This document shows positions 29,876 to 64,000 of a stretch of DNA of 64,000 nucleotides, piece by piece. The stretch covers positions 930,001-994,000 of the forward strand of contig JALRME010000014.1 in assembly GCA_026120035.1 (NCBI GenBank). The letters run 5' to 3'. A program made the translations under genes and the position numbers. How positions within the stretch are numbered: the first letter of the stretch is position 1; each line of letters begins with the position of its first letter. Under the pieces are notes generated by a model. The model saw only the letters and a list, made by a program, of their open reading frames with translations. It had not been told where the DNA came from and searched no databases. This DNA is from Coleophoma eucalyptorum (lineage: Eukaryota; Ascomycota; Leotiomycetes; Helotiales; Dermateaceae).

Positions 29876-30556
29876 CTATTTACAATCTGCAAAATATACT
29901 CCGAAGTATGACGTATATGGATTATGTGACTGATCCTTGTTAATTCCTTTTAGCACCTCTTTAGTGCAGTGCAGCGTATGGCTATAGTCTCCTTGATGAG
30001 GATCTATTCCAAAGCCTCCGTGAATGGATCTTTGGATCCTGCGACTCAAGAAAATACAGTGGCCAAGATGCTCTTCCCATGTCGTCCAGGTGAACTGAGG
30101 AAGAATTCGTTCGGAAAGTGCAATCTCATCGACAACGGAGTGTGTCAGGTTATCATCCGTAAAGAAGGGCCATGGTCCACGCTCGCGCTCAGAGCTCATC
30201 ACCCACTCACGAAATTCAGCAGATGTTTCTCGATCAAGGCACTCTTTTGGTAACCATGTGTAGCTCAAGAGATCAAACTCGCAGCCCCGAGCTCGTGCCT
30301 CTACTGTCGTGTTCCCACAGGGCGATTCTGATGCCGATGTGCTCGATTCTCGAGTGGCAGTTCGGTTAAGAAAGTGGGAACGGATCATCATCCAGCCCGA
30401 GATCATAAAGATGACACCCATAAGGAAAGATAATCCGCTACAGAAGAGAAACAGATACGAGTGACGCTTGACATGGTCGAATGGATTGGTAGGCGGAAGG
30501 TCATCTCCTGAGGTTCTTTGTGAGATCTTTGAGTAGGTCTGAGGCCACTTCCACAT
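29876..30556 (-). CDS. Membrane-anchored protein with two HxxHC motifs, divergent UstYa-like
   Basis: A single exon of 226 residues from the ATG at 30556 (MWKWPQTYSK). Residues about 38-60 are one TM helix (YLFLFCSGLSFLMGVIFMIS). The lumenal part starts with a Cys-rich signature, CGNTTVEARARGCEFDLLSY followed by TWLPKEC. Two His-Cys motifs come later: EEHLGHCIFLSRR and YSHTLHCTKEVL. The single TM plus two HxxHC motifs is the layout of UstYa-family oxidases, although overall similarity to the two canonical UstYa proteins nearby is low. The protein at 37473 has the same Cys signature and layout, so the two form a second family inside the cluster. Inferred role: oxidative modification of the RiPP core in the secretory pathway. 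No defects are seen. Confidence 0.75.
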   Translation of the reverse strand: MWKWPQTYSKISQRTSGDDLPPTNPFDHVKRHSYLFLFCSGLSFLMGVIFMISGWMMIRSHFLNRTATRESSTSASESPCGNTTVEARARGCEFDLLSYTWLPKECLDRETSAEFREWVMSSERERGPWPFFTDDNLTHSVVDEIALSERILPQFTWTTWEEHLGHCIFLSRRIQRSIHGGFGIDPHQGDYSHTLHCTKEVLKGINKDQSHNPYTSYFGVYFADCK

Positions 30557-31637
30557 ATTGTTAGACTCTAATTGGACCAACAACCATGGTATATTTAAAA
30601 GAAGTACAGATGCGATTGAATGGGCAACAAGCTATACGCATATGTGTGATAAGATTGCCACATGGGACAATGAGTTGAGCAGAAATAATTACAATACGTG
30701 GTGTCAAAGAAGCAACGTGCACAGCTGGTAGACGTCACGAATCTTACAGTACGATTCAAAAGCTAAGATAAAGGAAAATGTATGACATATAGCATAGATA
30801 AGACTTCCTTCCTGTAATGGCCGAATCAGCAGCGTATAGGATGGAAACTTGATAACTAGATAAGTGAACCCCTGTGCCTATGATCTGTCTCTACAGTAGT
30901 TGCAAAAATGCCCCCAAAGAATTCAAGTAAACTATACTAAAGACACATCGAAAGATAAGGATATTTATAGTGCATCCTACTTACAGTCTAAGAGCTTCCT
31001 CTACTGGCGAACAGTCCTAACACTTTCTAGATACGTTAGCTAGGTGAATGGCTATTACTCTCACGCTAGCAAGCCCCACTTTCGTCTCCACTTAGACTAC
31101 ACCATGCTTAGGAAAATCAGACCCATGACTTATATCCTTGTACAATTTACGAATATTGTTATCAATAAGGCTATAGACCCATGCCTTATGTCCTGTACAC
31201 TTTACGCACTTCAGTGTCAATAAGGCTATATGAAGATTTTATCATACGTAGGTGAGATGGCTGAGTCTCAATCATGTCGCGGTCCCGGCCAGCACTACCA
31301 CTCCAACGTACCCATTCTATAAGAACTATGTGGAATGGACCGCGGCTAGGGCTAAGCCAAATTAATAACTGATTCTAAAAAATGTTGTAATTTTATAAAT
31401 TCACTAAAGTTGATGCCGCAAATTAGAGAACATATAACTAGTCTTGCGTGTCCTAAACTAGAAAATTCATTATTTACTAGGTATCGCAAAGTACCAGTTG
31501 AGTGACAAAAGTGCCAGTTGAAGGACAGTCTTCTGGTTTTGATTACTATTTAACTTGATATTTTAGGACTTAATGAGATTAACGTGTCTGTCTTTCAGCT
31601 TACATTCGTAGGATTAGGCCGCAGTAGTCTTGACGAT
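30557..31637. other. Intergenic between divergent-family gene and arylsulfotransferase
   Basis: AT-rich with no supported gene. Near 31095-31235 a 60-base stretch is imperfectly repeated (CCATG.CTTATATCCTTGTAC and CCATGCCTTATGTCCTGTAC, each followed by ATCAATAAGGCTATA-like sequence). Confidence 0.4.
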
Positions 31638-33583
31638 TTAACTTCCTCCTAACTCTGAAGATACGCTACTAACACGTTTATAGTCGTATGACCTTTCTTT
31701 CCTTTTCAAATATCGAGAGGAAATCCAAAATAGCGCTATAAAAACCAGAGCGAAAGCTACGAACCCCCCTGTCAATTTCACGGAGGTCCTCAACATAGAA
31801 TTTTGCTTTGCATCAGAAACTGCGTTTGAAGGGCGAATGGTTTGATGAACCAAAGATCGCCCTAGTATTACTCCTTCCGCACCAAGTCCTTCAACATAAA
31901 CATATGCGATATTCCTTTCGGATACAAATGTTGTTTCAAAGCCTTCTTTAGGAACAGTTCCAAGCAGCGAGAATGACGAGTTATCAGCGGACCCGAAGAA
32001 CTTCCATGATAAAACCTCCGTCGCACCGTTCCAGCTGACATAATGCACAGTGGTAGAAGGGCCGTAAACATATGAGATGGCATCTGGATTCGTCACTGGA
32101 TAGCTCGTGAAATTGAACTTGTAAGAGCGATAGCTTGTAAAGCGATGGGACGCAAACCGCGCTTCATAAATGAGACGTCCGTCAGTTGTAAACTCGCTGA
32201 CATATCCATTATCGCTCCAACCAACAAAGGCGTGAGCATTCGGTAAGATCTGAACGTTCCCGCGGGCATACGACAAACCGTGATCAGGTCTCTCCCATCG
32301 GCGGAGAAGTCTCGCCTCCATAGTATTGGTATTCAGCTCTACAAGCAGAGCAGAACTGCATTCCGCCGACTGATGCTTCTTGTCATCAGCTGCATTATTC
32401 AGGAGTGACAGTATCGTAACAGTTCGGTCCTCGTATCGAACTCGAGCATCATGTTGATGAGAAAAGTTGAAGCCTTTGAGAGTAAAGGAGGAGCCCTTTC
32501 CTCCTAGCTGCCACACGATCGAGCCGTCAAGATGAGATATCTTGTAAATTGCACTGGTAGCTCGGGCGGAAACTATATAGTCTCCTTTGAAGGTCTTCTC
32601 TACAGAATTCATATGGCTACAAATTTTAGTATCTTGTCTCACTAGTGTGCAGCTGGGTGGACTGGTCTCACATCCAATCCCAATATAAGCTCATATCAAC
32701 ACCGGTCTCAGCCCCCGAAATCGGTACACTCCCGGGCCGGTGGTTTGGGTTGCCATCGCGCGGCCACTCATCATATGTTGCATTCAACTCAATATGGGTC
32801 AAGGGGCTCCACTGGAATAAGACTGCATTGGTGGCCACATCGATCTCAATAAAGCCATTATCAACAACTTTAAGCCCATTTATCTCTGCCGGAATGGCCG
32901 TTATAACCAGTGCAGATTTACCATCGTTGATGAGATTAAATTCATGCATATCGAAATCCGTGCCGCTCAAGGCTGGAGTCATCCCGATCAGCTGATACGA
33001 ACTGTTCAAATATACTCCTGTTCCGGCAGGAGTATTGTGACGGTACTTGTTAGGTGTCAATATGAAGGAGAGGGTCGGGACATGATTAACGTCAACGAGC
33101 TTGAAATCAAACGTGTTTCGGTTCGACAGCCATGCTGCACCCGTCCATATCAGTTCCTATTACCAATTAGTCGAAGGTAAAAACACAGGTATGTGGTCGG
33201 AGTACTCCATCAGAGGTGTATATTGCAGGGCCAATCTGCGCAGGTTGGAAGTTGTAAGGTTGTGGCTTGGGCCAGACATCGGTGTACGCGCCAACAAACA
33301 AATATCCTGAAGTCACCAGACCTCTCTCATAAATGGAGATATTCCAAGAAGGTGGACGAAGGTCTGGTGCCTATGGCCAATTGTGTTAAATATGTATTGT
33401 TTGGAGGGGAAAGGAGATATTCACCGACTTGAATGGGCCAGCTAGATCCTTACTGTTCCACGGCACAAAGTCTTTGCTCAAGTCTTCACTCAGACTGATC
33501 AAAGCGAAGCAGCCCTGGCCGAATACTGTGAGTAGCAAGGCATTGAGGAGCTGCATCTGAAGGCTAGTACCGGATCGGCGCAT
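31638..33583 (-). CDS. Arylsulfotransferase-like protein (ASST, Arylsulfotran_2 family)
   Basis: Four exons read right to left, 33583-33425, 33370-33206, 33156-32672 and 32616-31638, give 595 residues. The N-terminus has a hydrophobic signal or anchor (LQMQLLNALLLTVFGQGCFA). The body is a six-bladed beta-propeller-like sequence with the family's landmarks: TSDGELIWTG across intron 2, DVNHVPTLSF, MHEFNLINDGKSALVIT, WDWIHMNSVEKTFKGDYIVS across intron 3, IVWQLGGKGSSF and SHQHDARVRYED. Near the C-terminus there is VSWNGATEVLSWKFFGS and a TM helix (LTGGFVAFALVFIALFWISS) with a short basic cytosolic tail. Bacterial relatives move sulfate between phenols; activity of fungal members is largely unproven. 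It lies inside the RiPP block, so sulfation of a Tyr phenol is a possible but untested role. A paralogue lies at 61764. Confidence 0.85.
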
Positions 33584-34481
33584 TACTCAAGCCCTTTTTG
33601 CCTAACGGTTGGCAAATTGGAGACAGTGCGGAAGGAATATGGGAGAATTGTGTTGTGTTCAGCTCTTGCAAGCACATCTGGCAGATGAATCAGACCGATC
33701 CGTGTTGCTGGTGATAATCTAATTTCAGGTGAGAGAAATATGACTCAGGGCCGATGAAATTTAATTCGTATAGTAGAAAGTAACATGTATCCTATTTGCT
33801 ACATTCGTACTGTAGTTATACTATACCGTAAAAGTAACACCACCGTCCATGCACGAAATAGTGAATATGCGGATAATTAATCTTTTATTCTTTTACAACA
33901 AGAGATTTTAATGGTGGGGGGATAGATTTGGATGAAACCCAAATGCAGTGTGGGCTAAGCGGTAAAGGAAGGTAGTCCTGCAGAGAAACTGGAGTTGAAA
34001 CTACGAAAATTCAAAATAATTCCAGTGCAAGGATTAAGAGCTTGAACCTTTACAGATCAGGACCTAAATTATGAGGATTTTAGCCATTAGGTAAGTCAAG
34101 GTTGGGATGTACCGCTAACTTCGTGGTTGGGATTAAGGAAGGTCCGATACAGTCAGAAAATGATTGGTACTGCACAATCTCTGTTGTACGTCAAATCACG
34201 CCGTTAGGCTGCATGATATCTAGGCTTCAGAATATTTCCCAGGCTTGTTGCTAGGATAAATCGTTGACACCATATAGGGAAGGTGAAGGGATTATCGTTG
34301 ATACATGGGGAACTTATGATGCGCCACGAAGATTATCGGTTGTTAGTCGCGTCGTTATCTGCCCAGCCAGCTCTGGGGCCCTTGGGTACCTGATACACAC
34401 ACAACCATCAGCCTTTCCCCGATCCAGAGAGTGGTATTCTCCTGTTCTTCACAACACAACTTCTAACGATCAATAACCATT
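33584..34481. other. Divergent promoter region between arylsulfotransferase and UstYa genes
   Basis: About 900 bases with no supported gene, separating the starts of the minus-strand arylsulfotransferase and the plus-strand UstYa gene, so it probably carries both promoters. I see no strongly palindromic Zn2Cys6 site that I would assign. Confidence 0.4.
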
Positions 34482-35654
34482 ATGGATGTCAAATTTGAAG
34501 CAAGCGTACCGTTCTTGAAAAACGTCGACGACGATGGGGAGCTTTCTTACCATAAAAGATATGTTGAGATTCATGGACGATCATTCTCATGGTATCTTTT
34601 TGCAGTCGTTCTATTTCTCTTAAGTCATATTTTGACATTTGTCTTCGCCAACTGGACGTGGACCAGAAATATTGACAATTTCTGTGCACTTCACACATCT
34701 CAAAGCTGGAGTAAGTTTTATCTGGGATTGGAACTGCGAATAAAACTCACATTCAATTTTTAGGCCCTGTCCTCGATGACGTAGATATTAAATATACTAC
34801 GCGTACCTTTCATGGCTCATTCTTCAAAGATGATACAATATACAGGCAGTCAGCAAGTCCGGAAGTAGACCAGGCATGGCGAGATCTTGGCATTGATTGT
34901 AAGTATTTTCCGGTTTTCTTCTTAATGATTCTCCGAGAGGTTTGAGAAATAGTGCGAAGAAAAGCATTATCTCAGTTCATATTTGTGAAGCCATCTCAGA
35001 ATGCTACCAAAATATGGAATTAACTGATAACACCATATAGATAGAGGATTGCTCGTTGCACCTTCTAAAGCTGAGAAAGCAAATATCGCCTCGAACCGTG
35101 TCATGTTTAATGAAACCTGGGGCGGCCCTGGCTACCCAGGTATTTTTGAAGTCTTCCATCAACTGCACTGCTTGGTAAGTCACCTCACTCATTTCATATA
35201 ACCCTCAAATCCGGTCGTCTGATAATTTATATTCAAACACAGGACATCGTTCGCAAAAGCACCTTTTACAATTATGAGTATTATCTGAATCTTGGTGAGG
35301 GTGCATTTGAACACCCTAAGACCATACTTCCAGCACATGTTGGTTAGTATAACCCTGTCTCCCTACATACTTCGGGAGATACTTTATTCAAAGGATATTA
35401 ATTTCTATGATGGCTCAGCGCACTGCATTGATACCATCCGACAACAATTGATGTGTACGGCCGATACTGGTATCCACCCCTTTATTCTTGTCGGCGATCC
35501 TCCAATGGTCTTCCCAGAATTCACCCGCGAGCATAAGTGTAAAAACTTTGAGGATATCCGTGCATGGGCCGAAGAGCACCAAGGGAATTTTGATGAGAGG
35601 GCCCGTTTTCATACACCTCTCGAAGGCGAACTTATTTTGGATGAGATGCCGTGA
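34482..35654 (+). CDS. UstYa-family (DUF3328) oxidase, copy 1
   Basis: Five exons, 34482-34710, 34764-34898, 35041-35174, 35243-35342 and 35419-35654, give 277 residues. A short cytosolic N-terminus is followed by one TM helix (WYLFAVVLFLLSHILTFVFA). The lumenal domain has GSFFKDDTIYRQSASPEVDQ, AWRDLGIDY, and the two diagnostic motifs: FEVFHQLHCLDIVRK, split by intron 3, and HVAHCIDTIRQQLMC, split by intron 4. CTADTGIHPF and WAEEHQGNFDE follow. UstYa proteins are secretory-pathway enzymes needed for oxidative macrocyclisation of fungal RiPPs such as ustiloxin and asperipin. The gene is convergent with the RiPP precursor, whose stop lies 460 bases downstream. No defects are seen. Confidence 0.92.
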
Positions 35655-36111
35655 TGAAATATTAAATTTAAATCAAATTTCTATAGTTACCGCAGCCATA
35701 GAATGCATTTATCTGTATGCAAGAAATTTATGTAGAACTCATGATATGATAGATCATCCTTCACAATCCCTGTAAAAAATATTGCAGCTCAACTTCTCTT
35801 CTAAACAATTTGCATTCCTTCCCAGTAAAGAGATTTTCAAAATGTCAAGTCCAACATCTGCAGTCACTCGATCCTGATACCCAAAGACATAAGAAGGATT
35901 TTCATACTTTTATAGCTTCTTAAAATACACGGCGGGCCTTACGATGGCTTCTTACGAAACAAAAATGTACCAAATACAAATTAGAGCACGGCGCAGAATG
36001 TTGAATTCTACTTATACATCTATGGATATAATCTTCAACCATCCCTTCCCATAAGACGTCAAACAATAACATATGTTACTCCCGTACTTCTTCAAATCCT
36101 GCCTCCTATCC
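35655..36111. other. Short convergent intergenic region
   Basis: The 3' flanks of the UstYa gene and the RiPP precursor meet here. AT-rich, no gene seen. Confidence 0.5.
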
Positions 36112-36575
36112 TCAAGGACCAACCGAGTACTCTCCATAGTTGGAAAACTCAGGATCCCTCTTGGACTTTGCAGTCACACTGTACTCTCCATAGTTGGAAA
36201 ACTCAGGATCCCTCTTGGACTTTGCAGTCACACTGTACTCTCCATAGTTGGAAAACTCAGGATCCCTCTTGGACTTTGCAGNNNNNNNNNNNNNNNNNNN
36301 NNNNNNNNNNNNNNNNNNNNNNNNNNNNNNNNNNNNNNNNNNNNNNNNNNNNNNNNNNNNNNNNNNNNNNNNNNNNNNNAGTCACACTGTACTCTCCGTA
36401 GTTGGAGAATTCAGGATCTCTTTTTGCCACAGCTTCGGCAGGTTCTATGCATTTTATCAGTACAAGTTCATAACACATGCCACAAGGTTGGAAACCCACC
36501 TTCAATAATGGCGATTGGGCTGGCAAGAACCGTGGCTACGAGAGCGGCTGAAACAGTGTGAAAGAAGAACTTCAT
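36112..36575 (-). CDS. RiPP precursor peptide with Kex2-flanked tandem core repeats (dikaritin-like)
   Basis: Exon 1 (36575-36500) encodes the signal peptide MKFFFHTVSAALVATVLASP and then IAIIE. A 55-bp GT-AG intron (36499-36445) follows, and exon 2 (36444-36112) opens EPAEAVAKR. It then encodes 18-residue units KRDPEFSNYGEYSVTAKS, with Lys-Arg at each unit border for Kex2. One unit lies before the assembly gap (36282-36379, all N) and three after it; the last ends SVGP and TGA. Splicing keeps the signal peptide in frame with the repeats. The layout of signal peptide, one intron, KR-bounded identical Tyr-containing repeats and UstYa genes on both sides is that of ustiloxin, phomopsin and asperipin precursors. 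The core contains two Tyr and one Phe, none of which matches a core sequence I know. The gap as written (98 N) is out of frame, so true repeat number is unknown. Confidence 0.92.
36127..36430 (-). repeat. 54-bp in-frame tandem repeat with assembly gap
   Basis: Units at 36127-36180, 36181-36234 and 36235-36281 (cut by the gap) are identical; a diverged unit lies at about 36380-36430. The period of 54 bp equals 18 codons of the precursor. A run of 98 N (36282-36379) interrupts the array, as expected when short reads collapse an identical repeat. Confidence 0.95.
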
Positions 36576-37472
36576 GGTTCGGTAGGATATAATTGATTAC
36601 CACCAAGTAAATACTCCTTAAGTTGAGGGAAAAGATTGGGATCTGGGTTTTCACGGGTGTTTCTTGGTGATATAACTCTCCATTAAGTAGTAATAAACTC
36701 TCCGTTAAGTCTTAGTCTTTGTTGCTGCCATATCAGACGGGGTTCGGTGATGTCGGGCTTGCATCCGGAAATATTTTCTTGATTTAAGAATTTACGTGAA
36801 GGGACTGTTGTATTCGTTCTATTCCAGCAGGTAAAAGTAAGATCTATTATTGATAAGGTCAATTGAAGTCTTGTTGTCCGCTACAGCTTACCCCTCCCTG
36901 CATGGGGGAAACTGAAACTGCACCAATGCCGTTGGGTGCCACTTACAACCTACAGGTATAAAGCTCGCCCCGAGACACACGCAATTTGTCTAACCCATGA
37001 GGTACTCGAACTAGGTTTTCAAAAGTGGAGAAACCTCTTGCTACAATAGGAAAGTGATATATTTATGCGTAGGCTGGATCCCACGCTGGAAATCCCATGT
37101 GCCTGAATAGGATACTACGACCTTTCCTTGGTTGTAGTAGCCTATTACCTCTAGTTAATTGATGGAGGGAAATGATAGCACGATGTTTCATGTATCATTC
37201 TGGCTCGATCTATACTAAAAAGAGGGTTTTCTGCTATCGAAAGAGGATTGCATGATGTGCTGGGAGAATTACTAGGTTTTTATGACAATCAGCTCATGAA
37301 GCCTATAATGCTTAGACCAGAGATATTTTCAATTTAATCTGCGTATCATAGCTATACATATGCTATTGGCCCAGCGATAGCCGAAAAGTTCATTTCTATA
37401 GATACATACTACCGCATAGGAATGAATAAGTCTTTTTCTCATCTTTGACTATCTAAGTCGGTGTTGCCATTC
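36576..37472. other. Upstream region of the RiPP precursor
   Basis: About 900 bases with no supported gene. It lies between the start of the precursor and the end of the next minus-strand gene and should hold the precursor promoter. Confidence 0.45.
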
Positions 37473-38141
37473 TCATATAGAGTCCAATCTTAAACACCTG
37501 TAGAATCCTAACACCACATCGTTGCTAGCATTTTTCCCCTCCAGCCTCTGATTAAGCTCCATTGAACAGTGATTTGCGTGGCTCACATCAAGCGTCTTAT
37601 GATCAATCCACTCACTTCGGCGTTGTACCGCGATCGCCAACTTTCTCCACAAGAACAAGCAGTGTTCTCCATGATACCGGCGAGTGTAGATGTGTTTGTG
37701 TTTCCCAGCCCAGATGTCAGCCGAGGGAATTTTCTCCTCTTCTAAATATGAATTCGACAAGTACCAATCTCGATCTTCAAAGGGGTTGTATTGACTGGTT
37801 AATTCCGAAAAGTAACATGGCTTGGGCATCCAGCCATATACCATAGGTTCCATTATACAGCCGCGAGCTATAGCTTCTTCGTTGGTGGTACCGCAGGTGA
37901 GAATATTAGTCGTCGCTAGGATGTGGGAGTTGGAAGTTGGGGACAAGAGATAAGTCCCAACGGCGCCCAGAGAAGTCGCTGTCGCAAGACATAGAAAATA
38001 AAATATCCAGCGTGTTGGCATGACTTTGGCGGTTGGTTGTCTAACTGTCTCGGGATCTGAAGCATCGAATAGTCGATGATATGTAATTGATTTGGGACCA
38101 GAACTAGCCCAGCGCCAGAGGGATTTACTCTTGGAATTCAT
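37473..38141 (-). CDS. Membrane-anchored protein with two HxxHC motifs, divergent UstYa-like, copy 2
   Basis: A single exon of 222 residues starting MNSKSKSLWRWASSG. One TM helix lies at about residues 46-68 (WIFYFLCLATATSLGAVGTY). The lumenal part carries CGTTNEEAIARGCIMEPMVY followed by GWMPKPC, which is the same signature as in the 29876 protein (CGxTxxEAxARGC, then W.P..C). Two His-Cys motifs follow: YHGEHCLFLWRK and VSHANHCSMEL. It lies on the same strand as the precursor, which is 0.9 kb downstream, and is divergent from the second UstYa gene. By position and motif it is a candidate modifying enzyme or partner of UstYa in the secretory pathway; its chemistry is not known. No defects are seen. 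Confidence 0.78.
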   Translation of the reverse strand: MNSKSKSLWRWASSGPKSITYHRLFDASDPETVRQPTAKVMPTRWIFYFLCLATATSLGAVGTYLLSPTSNSHILATTNILTCGTTNEEAIARGCIMEPMVYGWMPKPCYFSELTSQYNPFEDRDWYLSNSYLEEEKIPSADIWAGKHKHIYTRRYHGEHCLFLWRKLAIAVQRRSEWIDHKTLDVSHANHCSMELNQRLEGKNASNDVVLGFYRCLRLDSI

Positions 38142-39193
38142 TTTCTTCCTTTTTGACTGTGAGTTAAATGGGATGTTCGAAGTGAGGTCTATTCACTTGA
38201 TGACCATAACAGTGGAGCATCAAAGGTCAGATACCGGTATTCTACGTTCTTGATATTTGATAACTGAGCACTAATGCAGTCTCATGGCATGGAGACTCCA
38301 CCAGAGAAGGATAAATCAACAAAATCATGATAAGGAAATCTTGTCAAAGTCCAACTATGTTATCCACAAGATGCTTCGAACGTTAATAAGCTATTACTGA
38401 TGAGGAAGGTTATATTCAAAGGTGTTTATGTTAATCAGCAAAAGGCAAAATTATTAGGACAAGGCTCTCCCACGCATTTGGTACTGCTCGTAATATGGAA
38501 TGAGTTATGATCTTCCTATTTGTTGGCGAATTCTTATCGGAGCTGATTACCCAAGTCTTGAGTAAGACGGTGATCGCTTATATAGCTGCAACCATCACGG
38601 GTACAACACTTGTTCATGCAGATGCCAGGGTTAGAACTCACTCATTGTTTCTTCGTACTATGTCCGCCCAACAGCGATAGTGGCGGTCGGGCCACCCCCG
38701 CTAAAGCTTATCTGCTTACAGTGCCGTACAGGCGAACAAAATAACCTCTATTAGGAAGGAATTGTAACGCACGTTTGATCGGTTCTCGCCTTCTATATAT
38801 GGGGTAAAGCTTTGCCATGAGGGACGTGGATAAAGTCAATCACCAACTACCATTATATCCTTGGCCAAAAAAAACCCGAACAACTAGGGAAATATTGCTC
38901 ACGCTAGATAAGTGATATATCAGCTTCCTAATCGGTACTAAAGCAAGATGTGTGGTATGAAATACGTACGAAGTAAAGCTTAGGAGTAGTACTAGTGGCA
39001 GATAGATCCTTCCCTGAAGAATTCTTATTACTACTTGCGCTCGGAATACAAAGTACAAAATCACTAGTAAGACTCATATTATGTGTCATCGGAAGGAATA
39101 TCGAGTAGATTGGTGTCTTTGTTGTATGATTAGTTTAGTTTTGTTCCAGTTTTCCCACCAATTTCTCTTGATAGCTTGAGTTCAAGATATATT
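38142..39193. other. Divergent promoter region inside the RiPP cluster
   Basis: About 1 kb without a supported gene between the divergent starts at 38141 and 39194; likely to contain promoters for both. Confidence 0.4.
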
Positions 39194-40294
39194 ATGGAGT
39201 CGCAAATTCAAGAAAATATACCTTTCTTGTCGGGCGACCTAGATCACGACGACCATAAGATCTACCATTCAGCAAAAGAACATAAGAGTCGTGAGCAATC
39301 ATTACAACGCTATCTAGCTCTCATCCTCATCTTATTCTTTCTCTCAAATATCTGTACCTTCATTTTTACACACTGGATTTGGACCAGAAATATCGACAAC
39401 TTAGTTGTGTCCTATACATCTCAAAGTTGGAGTAAGTACACCCCACATCTGGTCTTATTCATGAATAAAAGATTGGTCTGATTCAGCTCCGGCAGGCCCG
39501 GTTTCAGATGACATAAACATCCAATACATCACGACTGCCTTTGACGGATCTTTCTTTAAAGAGTCAATCTATCGGCAGACACCGAGCCCAGAGGTAGACC
39601 AAGCATGGCGAGATCTGGGGATTCAATGTGAGTTTGTCCATACTCGTCATAGGCCATTGACACCTTGAACCAAAAACGAAGAAGACCACTGACGACATAA
39701 CAAAAGACAAGGCTTTGGTCGTTCCGTCATCTCAGGCTGAAAAAGCGGGCATCATTCCTGATCGTGTGTCATTAAATGAAACCAATGGCGGTCCAGGCTA
39801 TCCAGCTATCTTTGAAGTATTCCATCAACTTCATTGCCTGGTAAAACTCCTGTTCTTATTATATACCGTAACTCCTAGCTGAAAGTATTAACATGTAGGA
39901 CTTTCTTCGTAAAGGATTATATTTCAATTACGAATACTATGTAAACCTCAGTGAAGGCCCGTTCAAGCACCCCGAAAAACAATTGAAGCCACATATTGGT
40001 AAGATTGACACCCTACATCCTAGAGTTGTCTACACATCTAACAGATCTAATCTTTCAGGGCACTGCCTCGACATGGTTCGGCAGCAACTGATGTGTTCGG
40101 CGGACACGGGTCTCCAGCCATTCATCTGGGTAGGCGACCCTCCGCATCCCTTTCCCGACTTCAACCAGAAGCACAAGTGCAGGAATTTTGACGCAATTCG
40201 AGAGTGGGCAGCGCTGCACCAAGGGAACTTTGATGAAAAGGCAGATTATCATGTGCCTCAAAAAGGAGAGTTGATCTTGGATGAAGTACCGTGA
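39194..40294 (+). CDS. UstYa-family (DUF3328) oxidase, copy 2
   Basis: Five exons, 39194-39431, 39496-39627, 39707-39840, 39899-39998 and 40059-40294, give 279 residues. Exons 3, 4 and 5 have exactly the lengths of those in the first UstYa gene (134, 100 and 236 nt), and intron phases match, so the two are paralogues. One TM helix (YLALILILFFLSNICTFIF) is followed by GSFFKESIYRQTPSPEVDQ and AWRDLGIQ, FEVFHQLHCLDFLRKG, HIGHCLDMVRQQLMC, CSADTGLQPF and WAALHQGNFDE. Both HxxHC motifs are intact. The acceptor of intron 2 is an unusual AAAAG (39706); a second acceptor choice exists for intron 1 (39486 or 39495), and I chose 39495 because it matches the paralogue. Expected role: second oxidative step on the RiPP core. 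Confidence 0.9.
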
Positions 40295-40999: not shown

Positions 41000-41973
41000 T
41001 AGTACGGTACCTTTATCGTGCGTCCAATGCGTAGGTTCAACGATGCCATGAAGTTTACCGGCAGTAGCAAGACCTTACTTCCTTCAAACTCGCATACTAG
41101 GGGCGAAGATAAGCACGGCTCACAATTTCCAAAGAAGACCAGTCGATCCCAGCCGTAAACCTAAGGGGTCTGCTTCTCTGATCGGTGTGCAATTTGATCG
41201 CGGAACGTGTGGTAAGTTGCCAGCCGAGGCCAAACCTCCTCGAGATATCGGAGCATCTCATAAGTGAACCCGCCGTAGTGTATACCGCCAGTGGATATCT
41301 CGGCAGCACCCTAGTCACTTTTACAAGCCGCCAGTAAGGTAAACCGGCTTGGATTGATGGCCCAGGACATATCAAGACTACTATCACGGTATATTGGCTC
41401 GGTGACAACCTCCTGTGCTGCTTCTTCGTCAGCAGGAAGATTCAGCGGAGGGATCGAGCCCTCTGGAGTTCGTAGGCAGCCATCATTTCACCAGGCACTG
41501 CCAGAATGACAGCTGTCTAAGCTCACGACTACCTGCACACCCTTATTATGAAGATCTTTCAACCATGAATTTAGTTGCCAGTCACGCAAGGCTGGCCCTC
41601 CTGAGCAGTAGTCAACTATCATCAAGGATGGATCTTCATCCGAACCATCCTGGGGTGATTTCTCGGTTTTTCTTAATCGTGCGCCGTGTCTAGAAGAGTG
41701 ATAAAAGAAGGATTCACCAGTATAAGCCTCAGACAAGACCTTGCTGAAATGCGCCTTTGTGTCTGAACCACGCGCCAAGATTAGGATATACGGGCTATCC
41801 AGTTCAAACTTCTTATTGACATAGGTCTTGATAGCCTGAACATCATTGACACAACCAGCTAGATTCTTTAGATAGAGCGGTTCACCATTCTCTTGTTTTC
41901 TCATACCGCCCTCCTGATTTACGTCTATTCCGATCAGCAACGCAAATCGTTTTGGCAAGAGGTTTGTAGACAT
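41000..41973 (-). pseudogene. Decayed caspase-like (peptidase C14, metacaspase-type) gene
   Basis: The frame starts at 41973 (MSTNLLPKRFALLIGIDVNQ) and continues with LAGCVNDVQAIKTYVNKKF. The catalytic His region reads FYHSSRHGARL where the family has SGHGA, and the catalytic Cys region is SLDSCHSGSAW. A TGA at 41490-41488 then stops the frame exactly where relatives have Arg (CGA to TGA is a RIP-type change). Sense continues in the same frame (NDGCLRTPEGSIPPLNLPAD, SRFTLLAACKSD) past two TAG codons to GWDRLVFFGN near 41110. With a substituted His loop and three stops it is unlikely to be active. It lies between two inverted LTR-like repeats. Confidence 0.85.
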
Positions 41974-42600
41974 ATTAGGTCAGTCGGTATAGAGAAACTT
42001 GTGCTTTGATAAGGTAGTTTAAGAAGTCAAGGTTATAATACTAGGCGCTAGGTTGAGAAGAAGACCGCCAATTCATGATTGACTATATACTAAGTACAAG
42101 TCGCAACAGTTTGGCCCTACATATAAGTATGTGTAAGTATAAATTGAAGGACATGTGAAAGCGGGCACGGGCTAACTTTACCGCTCGATCGATCTTGTAC
42201 ATAGGTGGAACTACTATAGGCTTAAGCAAAGTCACGTGGTATTTTTAGGCAATACAAGAGAATCATAACGTATTTCACAAGCAAACCGATGCCCCAAACG
42301 AACTACCACTGAGTAACATTAGTATCCTAACGTTAGTTATCGTCATTCACAGGGTGATTAAGTTTTTTTTGTATAATAAAATTAAGGTATAGTCTGTGCC
42401 CTATAGCGTAAATAGGTTAACCCTAAGTAACTCCAACCCTATCATTATCGCCTATAATTTGTCTAGAATCATTTGAAAATACTACAGACAACTAAGAAGC
42501 TATAGCCTAACATAACCCTAAAGTATTCGATTATATAGTTATGTTCAATGTTGAGTTTGGCGTATTGTGTTTGTAGTACAAACACGCCGTTTCGTCTACC
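41974..42600. other. Intergenic, no gene seen
   Basis: AT-rich. It contains single TAACCCTAA words (42418 and 42509 regions) but no array. No gene is supported. Confidence 0.4.
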
Positions 42601-46216: not shown

Positions 46217-46450
46217 GTCATTATGGTTGTGTATTGCGGACAATATAAAGTTATGGGCCGAGTTCCTTCTGCAGCTTATATTACCTCAAAAACTGATCTC
46301 AATGATTTGTATACCCTACAGTATAGAGTTATAAGCCGAGTTCCTTCTGCAACTTATATTACATCAAAAACTGGCCTTAACGAGGTGTGTATCGTACGTT
46401 ATAGAGTTATAGGCCGAGTTCGTTCAGTAGCTCGTATAAAGCTCGTCTTC
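46217..46450 (+). repeat. Degenerate tandem repeat, about 78-bp period, three copies
   Basis: The block GTTATAGGCCGAGTTC followed by CTTATATTAC-like and CAAAAACTG...CTTAACGA-like sequence recurs with starts near 46248, 46326 and 46404. Copies differ by scattered transitions. The plus frame stays open through it, but no domain is visible. Confidence 0.65.
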
Positions 46451-61763: not shown

Positions 61764-63479
61764 CTAGCCGACCAAAACAATATCCGATTTTCTCGATACC
61801 TTTCCGCAAGAGCGCTCAATAGCACCAGCCTGGACAGCTTCAGACCCAGAAGGAATAGAAAAGGAAGTCTCAAAGCCCTCCTTAGAGATAATTCCAACAC
61901 GCTTGAGTGTCTCGTTGCTGGACCCTGCATAAATTTCATATTCAGTGACGTCTGTCGCTCCATTCCAGCTCACATAACCACGGAGTAAAGAAGAAGTGCA
62001 GCTACTCAGTAAATCATTGGCTGTAAGCTGCTTAACTACCAGGCTTGGTTTCGCTGATGGAGTAGCATGCCATTCATCCTTGTAAACACGGTACGAATCA
62101 GCAGTGTCAGAGGTGCTGAATTGAGCAGACCAGCGCACGTCGCTACCATCGGGTTTGGAACCATATTCCTTGATAATTGGATGGAGACCATAGCCCATTA
62201 GGTAATTTCCATTTGATAGCGACGTGAATGAACCTGCGGCAGCGGTGAAAAGCGTCTGCACAGGGTCGGAGAGGTTGGTATAGACGACAGGAGGATGGTC
62301 GGAATCAGGAACTTTTGGGAGGATCAGCGAGAGACCAACCGTTGGGATGGTGGTGTTCAATTGCCAATTGTTGTTCGCGAACATGGTGTATAGATTGCGA
62401 TCCTTGGAAAACTCTTGGATACGAACCATGTGCTGCCAGGACTAGAGGAATGATTAAATGTTGGTCGGCTGGCTTAGATAGAACGGATGAAAGGATGAAA
62501 AGAAGAAACTAACAAATTGGACGTTGGATGGAAGAGCACCGAAGTCGCCTCCAGTTTCGCCGTTGATCTCCCACAAGATTTTTCCGGCTCGATTAACTAA
62601 ATATGATGTCCACGTGTGACGACTGTTGATTAAATAATTATCGCCAAAAGACTCGATAGAATTGGTGTGAAACCAGTCATAGGGAGTTGTCCTATTTAAT
62701 CCGGTAGAACCAATGGGCATGTGGGTGGCAGTAACAGGCACATGAGCCAATGGACTCCAGATAAACAAAACATTGCCAGTCTTTATATCGACTTCGACAG
62801 CAAGAGGGTCCAGGACCCATCCATTGTCAGGCCCACCTACAGCAGTGAGGTTGGTCTGTGTGAGATTATATGCTGTAACAAGCATAGTATCGCGAGGAGT
62901 GATAAAGGATTCGTGAACGTCATTTTGGCATGGTGGAATTATACCTGGAAAGTTCATGTCATTCAGCTGGAGACAAACGGTGTGAATGACTGAGTAAGAT
63001 TGATCAAGAATTGGCACTTTGCCGTACCCATATGAAGCCAGTCCATCGTTCGCAGGACTGCCTACACCGGTCCAGTATGTAATTACGGGTTTGTTGTCGA
63101 ATTTCTGAACCCGAAAGTTATTTGTGGCTTCTGTAGGCCCAGCCCAAATCAGTTCATTAGTGTCGGTAAAGATAATAGGTGCCTGTTGTTTAGCTCCAGG
63201 GGGAGTTGCATCATTCGTCTGAGCCAGGAAAAGAAAACCTGGGGCAAGCGGTTCGCCGGAAGCATTTATCCTCATGAAAGGAGGTGTCGCATTGAACGAT
63301 TGATAAGTCTGCCAGGGCCAGATACCCGCGAGAGAATCCTCCGCGACCTCGCGGCTATTGGCCGAGCAGACAACTGTTTTGTCTTCATGTCGATACCAAA
63401 ACCGAGAAGGTGAACACTCTGTTTGTGAAAGAGCCAGGGCAAAACACAAGAGTTCAGAAAATCTCCGATGAAGATACAT
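61764..63479 (-). CDS. Arylsulfotransferase-like protein (ASST), second copy
   Basis: Two exons, 63479-62514 and 62441-61764, separated by a 72-bp intron, give 547 residues. An N-terminal signal peptide (RRFSELLCFALALSQTECSP) is followed by the family's order of landmarks: PGFLFLAQTNDATPPGAKQQ, IIFTDTNELIWAGP, DVHESFITPRDTMLVTAYNL, WVLDPLAVEVDIKTGNVLFI, YDWFHTNSIESFGDNYLIN, ILWEINGETGGDF and SWQHMVRIQEFS. It ends VSWNGATDVTEYEIYAGSS and a short tail without a TM helix, unlike the 31638 copy. The QHDAR-type motif of the first copy is QHMVR here, so a conserved Asp is replaced. It is probably secreted; substrate is unknown. No internal stop is seen. Confidence 0.82.
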
Positions 63480-64000
63480 AGCTGCTTGGTTGATACAGGC
63501 GAGACAATCAAGTTGAAAGAAACTGGGCTTTGCATAGCGAAGGCCACGATATATATAGTCTTTAGGGATGGAAATTCATGGCAACTCTCTCTCTCTTTTT
63601 AGTCACTGGTTATCCGAAATAAGGCAAACCCTTCTCCAGTGCAAATTCCCCAGGAATATTTCGTACATGGACCCACATAATGAGAGTGCGGGGAGTTTGC
63701 GATGTAAAGATAAACGACCGGAATCCGGCAGCCCAGGGCTTGAATATACCTGACAGCCCAAATCTAACAGGGAAATATAACTACGTGACCTTAGTCTACA
63801 CCGCAAAGATCCTCCCACATTAGAGCGTCATGAATAAACTTTTCTGGGTCAACTTATCTCTCAGACGCTTATATAATCGTATTAAATTTGCATTTTCTGA
63901 TATCTAGGTTCCGTGCCTCACGCATAGAGCCTGTATAACAGTCTCAAACCTCAGCTTTCTCGATTAACCCATAGGTAGTGATGATCCAAACCACAGAAAT
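63480..64000. other. Upstream region of the second arylsulfotransferase
   Basis: Non-coding by appearance. A TATATATAG word lies about 70 bases upstream of the start on the minus strand (near 63550). No further gene is visible before the window ends. Confidence 0.4.

What the first reader, a model, noticed from the sequence alone, without database searches (positions are those of the whole stretch)
29876..40294. Probable undescribed dikaritin-type RiPP cluster built on a KR-flanked NYGEY repeat
Seen: a signal peptide, a short intron, then tandem 18-residue units KRDPEFSNYGEYSVTAKS on the minus strand at 36112-36575, with UstYa (DUF3328) genes on both sides. Known: ustiloxin, phomopsin and asperipin precursors share the layout of signal peptide, Kex2-cut repeats and UstYa genes that cyclise the core. 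Inference: the product is a Tyr-crosslinked cyclic peptide from the DPEFSNYGEY region. It matches no core I know (YAIG, YVIPID, FYYTGY). I see no tyrosinase, methyltransferase, FMO or peptidase gene in the block, so the pathway may be short.
Basis: partly seen in the sequence, partly recalled or inferred. Interest (0 to 1): 0.95.

Follow-up and report, generated by a model that had tools for sequence, protein, structure and literature searches.

The report
Fungal secreted-peptide cluster with copper-type enzymes
This fungal gene cluster appears to make a small secreted, tyrosine-containing peptide cut from a repeated precursor and altered by copper-type membrane enzymes, some of which belong to an unnamed enzyme branch that may serve many similar peptides.

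Summary
A minus-strand gene at 36112-36575 encodes a signal peptide, a 55-nt intron and KR-flanked 18-residue units (four read); a run of 98 N interrupts the array, so the copy number is unknown. Canonical UstYa (PF11807/DUF3328) genes flank it. Two unnamed JGI proteins share the signal region and keep YGEYSV in every unit, while residues after KR vary (DP, EA, VPEA, APEA), like Ste13-type trimming dipeptides. Best reading: a Kex2-processed, UstYa-modified RiPP (dikaritin type) with a new core. A Tyr crosslink is plausible, not shown.

The two other flanking membrane-protein genes (29876-30556, 37473-38141) belong to a family Pfam does not recognise (PF11807: 0 of 28 aligned members at E<=0.1). 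It has one predicted membrane helix, a fixed Cys pattern and usually two HxxHC motifs (25 of 28); profile comparison makes it a remote UstYa relative. In this genome its 15 genes lie at 10 loci: PF11807 hits are within 5 kb at 6 of 10, and KR-repeat precursors sit at 4 of 10, two of these without a PF11807 hit nearby. This looks like a second, unrecognised set of modifying enzymes for such peptides. Everything is computational.

The parts
36112..36575 (-). precursor gene: signal peptide exon, 55-nt intron, KR-flanked repeat units
   Evidence: relatives P0001 and P0019
36500..36575 (-). exon 1, signal peptide (by eye)
36445..36499 (-). intron, GT...AG, 55 nt
   Evidence: inferred from sequence, no RNA data
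36282..36379 (.). 98-N run inside the repeat array, copy number unknown
36127..36281 (-). readable tandem array, 54-nt unit, 2.9 copies, 100% match
34473..35654 (+). UstYa (PF11807) gene A, several exons; motif HQLHC read directly
   Evidence: ends and exon joins by eye, the script returned no spliced model
39194..40294 (+). UstYa (PF11807) gene B, several exons; motif HQLHC read directly
   Evidence: same caveat
37473..38141 (-). Pfam-less membrane protein with HGEHC and HANHC, remote UstYa relative
29876..30556 (-). second member of the same Pfam-less family, HLGHC and HTLHC
   Evidence: start codon by eye
31638..33156 (-). arylsulfotransferase-like gene (PF14269 on two ORF pieces), possible but unproven cluster member; an upstream exon to 33586 is likely by eye only

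Best explanation
The cluster makes a ribosomal, secreted, modified peptide. The precursor enters the ER through its signal peptide. Membrane-anchored enzymes facing the lumen (two canonical UstYa proteins and two remote UstYa relatives, each family carrying HxxHC...HxxHC) oxidise the YGEY part of each unit, most likely forming a side-chain crosslink or ring on Tyr. Kex2 cuts after KR, a Ste13-type peptidase removes DP, a Kex1-type peptidase removes KR, and a product of about 12-14 residues centred on EFSNYGEYSV is secreted. Shown: the gene layout, the repeat, conservation of YGEYSV in two relatives, PF11807 membership of two genes, remote relationship of the other two, and their linkage across this genome. 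Inferred: all processing, membrane orientation and chemistry. The rivals on the kind of modification and on the role of the Pfam-less proteins are compatible with this main reading, so the odds do not sum to one.
For: Repeat, signal exon and intron read directly. PF11807 on both sides, about 0.5 and 2.6 kb from the precursor. Two relatives with the same signal region and YGEYSV in each of their 3 and 4 units: P0001 at E 2.3e-6, P0019 at E 2.5e-41 with a profile built from P0001 and the window; residues just after KR vary as DP/EA/VPEA/APEA. The two other flanking genes are homologous (E 2e-12 for that single comparison). Their family aligns to UstYa with both HxxHC motifs in register: hhalign probability 75.4, E 2.4e-5 for that single comparison, score 41.25 against a best of 16.9 in 200 column shuffles and 13.9 reversed. 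In this genome 9 of 15 family genes (6 of 10 loci) lie within 5 kb of a PF11807 hit; a simple binomial estimate gives 7e-10, or 4e-8 for 5 of 9 without the window. KR-repeat precursors at 4 of the 10 loci, the window included. DUF3328 enzyme CctR uses HxxHC...HxxHC as a two-copper site, proposed to face the organelle lumen (PMC12435403, abstract and passages).
Against: No tyrosinase in the pieces scanned, which ustiloxin and phomopsin need (PMC7329392 passages), though dikaritin clusters lacking some of the original genes are known (PMC12048977 passages). No expression or product data. Two of the three other precursors beside this family have no Tyr, so Tyr chemistry is not forced. Neighbourhoods of the relatives could not be fetched. 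Of 28 aligned members one shows a single HxxHC and two show none (C9:95.6k, itself in a precursor cluster, and C90). hhalign probability is 75, not near 100, and covers 53 columns around the motifs only. The fold could not be compared with UstYa.
Confidence: 0.72

Rival explanations
1. The precursor gives plain linear secreted peptides (signal, pheromone-like or surface peptides) and the UstYa genes serve something else nearby.
For: Most Kex2-repeat proteins have no DUF3328 neighbour: genes for 1758 of 7878 (22%) do (PMC7329392 passages). Ste13-like EA/DP dipeptides are shared with alpha-factor type precursors (recalled). No tyrosinase in the pieces scanned.
Against: PF11807 genes lie on both sides within about 3 kb, and the same paper found yeast mating factors and fungal pheromones almost never accompanied by DUF3328. 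The window piece and both relatives match no pheromone family in Pfam at E<=1.
Confidence: 0.17
2. A modified peptide is made, but by hydroxylation, halogenation or a crosslink not involving Tyr; the YGEY tyrosines are recognition residues.
For: DUF3328 enzymes are also implicated in hydroxylation and halogenation (PMC12435403). Two other arrays beside the Pfam-less family lack Tyr: GEQSVDPEGMFSTSVD and DILSQD.
Against: Two Tyr are invariant in all units read in three precursors. 65.6% of repeats with a DUF3328 gene nearby contain Tyr against 38.2% of others (PMC7329392).
Confidence: 0.3
3. The Pfam-less neighbours are not enzymes but partners, such as copper delivery or electron transfer proteins or dimer partners for the canonical UstYa proteins.
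For: The CctR authors propose an accessory protein delivering Cu(I) or electrons. Three of 28 aligned members lack one or both motifs. At 6 of 10 loci a PF11807 gene is close by.
Against: 25 of 28 keep both HxxHC motifs. Two precursor loci (C9, C56:126k) have the family but no PF11807 hit nearby, though C9 has an unrecognised UstYa-like piece and C56:126k lies about 3 kb from the end of its contig.
Confidence: 0.25

Closest known systems
Dikaritins / UstYa-type fungal RiPPs (ustiloxin, phomopsin, asperipin-2a clusters)
   Same: Signal peptide, Kex2-cut repeats with Tyr, DUF3328 genes adjacent
   Different: The string YGEYSV is in no paper of the library (0 papers); no tyrosinase, methyltransferase or peptidase in the block pieces scanned; two extra proteins from a Pfam-less family
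Kex2-processed repeat proteins (KEPs; PMC6339444 and PMC7329392, passages)
   Same: Repeat units separated by KR in a small secreted protein
   Different: Linked to canonical and remote UstYa genes; own repeat family with two relatives found
DUF3328 / UstYa enzymes (PF11807; CctR, AprY)
   Same: The Pfam-less family shares one predicted membrane helix, a domain after it, and HxxHC...HxxHC
   Different: PF11807 matches 0 of 28 aligned members at E<=0.1; of the 7 family members scanned at E<=10, one matches it at E 0.31, below the cut-off. Own CG...EA...GC...C pattern; no significant match in solved structures
Venturia inaequalis dikaritin clusters (PMC9632046)
   Same: Nine clusters found by DUF3328 next to repeat precursors in one fungus (passages)
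   Different: Precursor sequences were not compared here

Membership tests
Dikaritin (UstYa-type RiPP) | secreted precursor with repeated core units between Kex2 sites | tested here: met
   signal peptide by eye
Dikaritin (UstYa-type RiPP) | DUF3328/UstYa gene adjacent (class-defining enzyme) | tested here: met
   PF11807 on pieces of 34715-34942, 35289-35651, 39465-39665, 39899-40291
Dikaritin (UstYa-type RiPP) | Tyr in the core | tested here: met
   YGEY in all units read, also in relatives
Dikaritin (UstYa-type RiPP) | tyrosinase, methyltransferase, peptidase or transporter genes of the original definition | tested here: not met
   none in the ten ORF pieces scanned; later definitions name DUF3328 as class-defining (PMC12048977 passages)
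Dikaritin (UstYa-type RiPP) | side-chain cyclised product | not testable with these tools
   needs mass spectrometry or NMR
Kex2-processed repeat protein (KEP) | secreted protein with similar repeats separated by KR | tested here: met
Alpha-pheromone precursor | match to a pheromone family | tested here: not met
   no pheromone family in Pfam at E<=1 for the window piece, P0001 and P0019
UstYa/DUF3328 (PF11807), for genes 29876-30556 and 37473-38141 | Pfam score above cut-off | tested here: not met
   0 of 28 members match PF11807 at E<=0.1
UstYa/DUF3328 superfamily, same genes | two HxxHC motifs | tested here: met
   both window genes, and 25 of 28 members
UstYa/DUF3328 superfamily, same genes | statistically supported profile similarity to UstYa | tested here: met
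   limited to 53 columns
UstYa/DUF3328 superfamily, same genes | membrane helix followed by a folded domain | tested here: met
   model helix 43-66, later domain mostly pLDDT 94-98; tested for 37473-38141 only; side of the membrane inferred
UstYa/DUF3328 superfamily, same genes | same fold as UstYa | tested here: inconclusive
   UstYa model poor (pLDDT 61.6); similar order of elements around the motifs only
UstYa/DUF3328 superfamily, same genes | binuclear copper site | not testable with these tools
   shown for CctR (PMC12435403 passages)

The most novel reading that the evidence does not exclude
Fungi use a second, Pfam-invisible branch of HxxHC membrane enzymes to modify Kex2-repeat peptides, including peptides without tyrosine, so many precursors now counted as lacking a DUF3328 neighbour and assumed linear are in fact modified.
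Probability: 0.45. Interest if true: 0.75.

Novelty: new variant of a known kind. Interest (0 to 1): 0.55.

Why it matters
DUF3328 has been used as the marker of modified fungal Kex2-repeat peptides, and the kingdom-wide survey counted neighbouring genes by Pfam profiles (PMC7329392 passages). A family that Pfam misses but that sits at such precursors would not have been counted. It gives a concrete search profile and a testable claim: precursors beside this family but without PF11807 should also give modified peptides. The window also adds a precursor family (YGEYSV) with two relatives in public protein data.

Tried and rejected
Chance ORF: rejected, since the array, intron, UstYa neighbours and relatives agree. 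Paralogous copies of this precursor in the genome: a piece finds only its own gene. Plasmid collection, near mode: no match. tRNA and Rfam: nothing. Viral contigs with P0019: three stretches matched a pattern, none confirmed. Solved structures: none for UstYa, none significant for the Pfam-less family or P0019. A UstYa model for fold comparison was too poor to use. Spliced models of the two UstYa genes: my script, with narrow donor rules, returned none, so exon pieces only are claimed. Arylsulfotransferase as a core member: 20 exon-level hits genome-wide, only C7:962k and C11:319k within about 10 kb of PF11807, so left as possible; the one paper listed with both terms mentions them apart (passages). 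Motif text search: 52 papers held one of four strings, 30 listed, none about fungal peptides by title; YGEYSV alone: 0 papers. Organism not identified.

Dropped or limited rows: array scans covered the stretches held, often 1.5 kb on each side of a hit, so absence of precursors at other loci is weak evidence. One search also flagged short 18-nt arrays at C43 (L063, AKRDKR) and C4 (L034, RRTGWP); I discounted them because the unit is six residues and no signal peptide was seen, a judgement. Three of the 15 family genes (C4, C43, C16:571.6k), whose frames are broken in the genomic DNA, were not put in the 28-member alignment. C16:622077 was a weak single-seed hit and is not counted. P0018 (partial) was left out. 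The binomial estimate treats loci as independent and uses positions that I entered by hand. Counts of PF11807 hits are lower bounds by the tool's own note.
Full report
What is there. The minus strand at 36575-36112 carries a small gene: an exon encoding a signal peptide (by eye), a 55-nt GT-AG intron, and a second exon with KR-separated units DPEFSNYGEYSVTAKS, 18 residues with KR. The readable part of the array after the gap is 36127-36281, 54-nt period, 2.9 copies, 100% match. A run of 98 N lies between copy 1 and the three later copies. A second array in this genome has a run of the same length, so I take it as an assembly placeholder and leave the copy number open. Between copy 1 and copies 2 and 3 the differences over the 13 comparable codons are synonymous; the last copy keeps Ser-Val with other codons before its different end. 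This points to selection on the peptide.

Relatives. Against 5.8 billion proteins the precursor (X in the gap) found one relative at E<=1, P0001 (108 aa, E 2.3e-6). A profile of the two found one more, P0019 (122 aa, 29 contigs, E 2.5e-41). Both are unnamed JGI proteins, share the signal region, and carry YGEYSV in each of their 3 and 4 units. Just after KR the units read DP, EA, VPEA or APEA while the rest is stable. That is what X-Ala/X-Pro trimming by a Ste13-type peptidase would leave free to vary (inference from alpha-factor processing, recalled). So the mature core is probably EFSNYGEYSV, EVAYDYGEYSV or EKAYDYGEYSV with a short tail. Their neighbourhoods could not be fetched.

Neighbours. 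PF11807 (UstYa) matches exon pieces at 34715-34942 and 35289-35651, and at 39465-39665 and 39899-40291. Both genes show HQLHC; the second motif seems to span an intron in each (by eye; my splice script gave no model). The genome (45.3 Mb, 101 contigs) has 47 PF11807 exon hits, about 35 genes in 26 clusters by my merging. The genes at 29876-30556 and 37473-38141 match no Pfam family at E<=0.1, yet are homologous to each other. Seventeen relatives of the second were found in public proteins, none with a Pfam domain listed. Alignment A1 has 28 members: both window genes, 16 of these 17 proteins and 10 other genes of this genome. Invariant or nearly so are CG...EA...GC, W, C, the His and Cys of HxxHC and HxxHC, and a last C. 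Both motifs are complete in 25 of 28; one member shows one, two show none.

Remote UstYa relatives. Comparing A1 with ten UstYa sequences or pieces of this genome (A2) gave hhalign probability 75.4 and E 2.4e-5 over 53 columns, both motifs in register. As a control, 200 column-shuffled versions reached at most 16.9 against the real 41.25, and the reversed one 13.9. No member reaches PF11807 at E<=0.1 (0 of 28); of seven family members scanned at E<=10 one (L046, C9) shows PF11807 at E 0.31 over most of the profile. The AlphaFold model of 37473-38141 has a helix at 43-66 and a confident domain after it, with the two motifs on two helices. It has no significant match among solved structures. The UstYa model was too weak to compare. 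The layout is that of CctR, a DUF3328 enzyme shown to be a membrane-associated, copper-dependent homodimer using HxxHC...HxxHC (PMC12435403: abstract and passages).

Linkage in the genome. Five seeds give the same 15 genes at 10 loci (no single seed found all), plus one weak hit not counted. Nine of 15 genes, at 6 of 10 loci, lie within 5 kb of a PF11807 hit. The area within 10 kb of PF11807 clusters is 1.2% of the genome, so a binomial estimate gives 7e-10, or 4e-8 for 5 of 9 without the window. KR-repeat precursors occur at four of the ten loci: the window; C9 at about 94 kb (signal peptide, about 12 copies of EAEPAQMGTQAYKR), with three family genes around it; C56 at about 30.3-31.6 kb (signal peptide, 15 or more copies of GEQSVDPEGMFSTSVD), with a UstYa gene on one side and a family gene on the other, and a second family gene beyond the UstYa gene; and C56 at about 126 kb (signal exon, likely intron, about 17 copies of DILSQD), beside one family gene. 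The last has no PF11807 hit on the 96 kb between it and C56:28.7k, but the contig ends about 3 kb beyond. C9 has no PF11807 hit on the contig, though an unrecognised UstYa-like piece with HQIHC and HASHC lies at C9:97.3-97.7k. Two of these four cores lack Tyr. At the other six loci no comparable array was seen in the partial stretches held; two short 18-nt arrays there were discounted.

How it probably works. The precursor is made into the ER; lumen-facing HxxHC copper enzymes oxidise the core; Kex2, Ste13-type and Kex1-type peptidases release it; it is secreted. I hold the modified-peptide reading at 0.72 and a Tyr crosslink specifically at about even odds. The rivals are a linear peptide, a non-Tyr modification, and a partner role for the Pfam-less proteins; the last two are compatible with the main reading.

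Known or new. The precursor with UstYa genes is a new member of the dikaritin/KEP kind: genes for 22% of 7878 Kex2-repeat proteins have DUF3328 genes within 15 genes (PMC7329392 passages), and one Venturia genome has nine such clusters (PMC9632046 passages). Tyrosinase was not found, but a later definition names DUF3328 as the class-defining enzyme (PMC12048977 passages). What differs is the second, Pfam-less family. I saw no description of it in the listings or in the passages of the six papers that I opened; most listed papers I did not open, and subscription journals are missing, so this is not proof that it is undescribed.

Noticed in passing
L066, L053, L046, L041 (own genome C9:91.8-99.7k): A second precursor cluster: about 12 copies of EAEPAQMGTQAYKR with three Pfam-less family genes and an unrecognised UstYa-like piece (L067); one family gene (L053) has lost both HxxHC motifs.
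   Followed up: partly
L040, L023, L064, L060 (own genome C56:24.7-33.2k): Precursor with 15 or more units GEQSVDPEGMFSTSVD, no Tyr, with a 98-N run, between a UstYa gene and a Pfam-less family gene; a second family gene lies beyond the UstYa gene.
   Followed up: partly
L045 2550-3240 (own genome C56 about 126k): Signal exon, likely intron and about 17 units DILSQD separated by KR/KKR, next to a Pfam-less family gene, near a contig end, with no PF11807 hit on the 96 kb on the other side.
   Followed up: partly
L065 near 4619, minus strand (own genome C26:368.6k): Possible small secreted protein without repeats close to a UstYa gene and a Pfam-less family gene; could be a non-repeat precursor.
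   Followed up: no
window 62457-63575 and 31638-33156: Two arylsulfotransferase-like genes (PF14269) in one window; the family has 20 exon-level hits in the genome and one other copy near UstYa at C11.
   Followed up: partly
window 41491-41979: Weak caspase-like ORF (PF00656, below its cut-off) just beyond the cluster.
   Followed up: no
window 46240-46425: Tandem repeat with 78-nt unit, 2.4 copies, 82% match.
   Followed up: no
window 31119-31230: Imperfect 55-nt tandem duplication (two copies, 80% match).
   Followed up: no
P0016: A relative of the Pfam-less family is filed under the tree Carpinus fangiana; I guess it is fungal DNA in a plant assembly.
   Followed up: no
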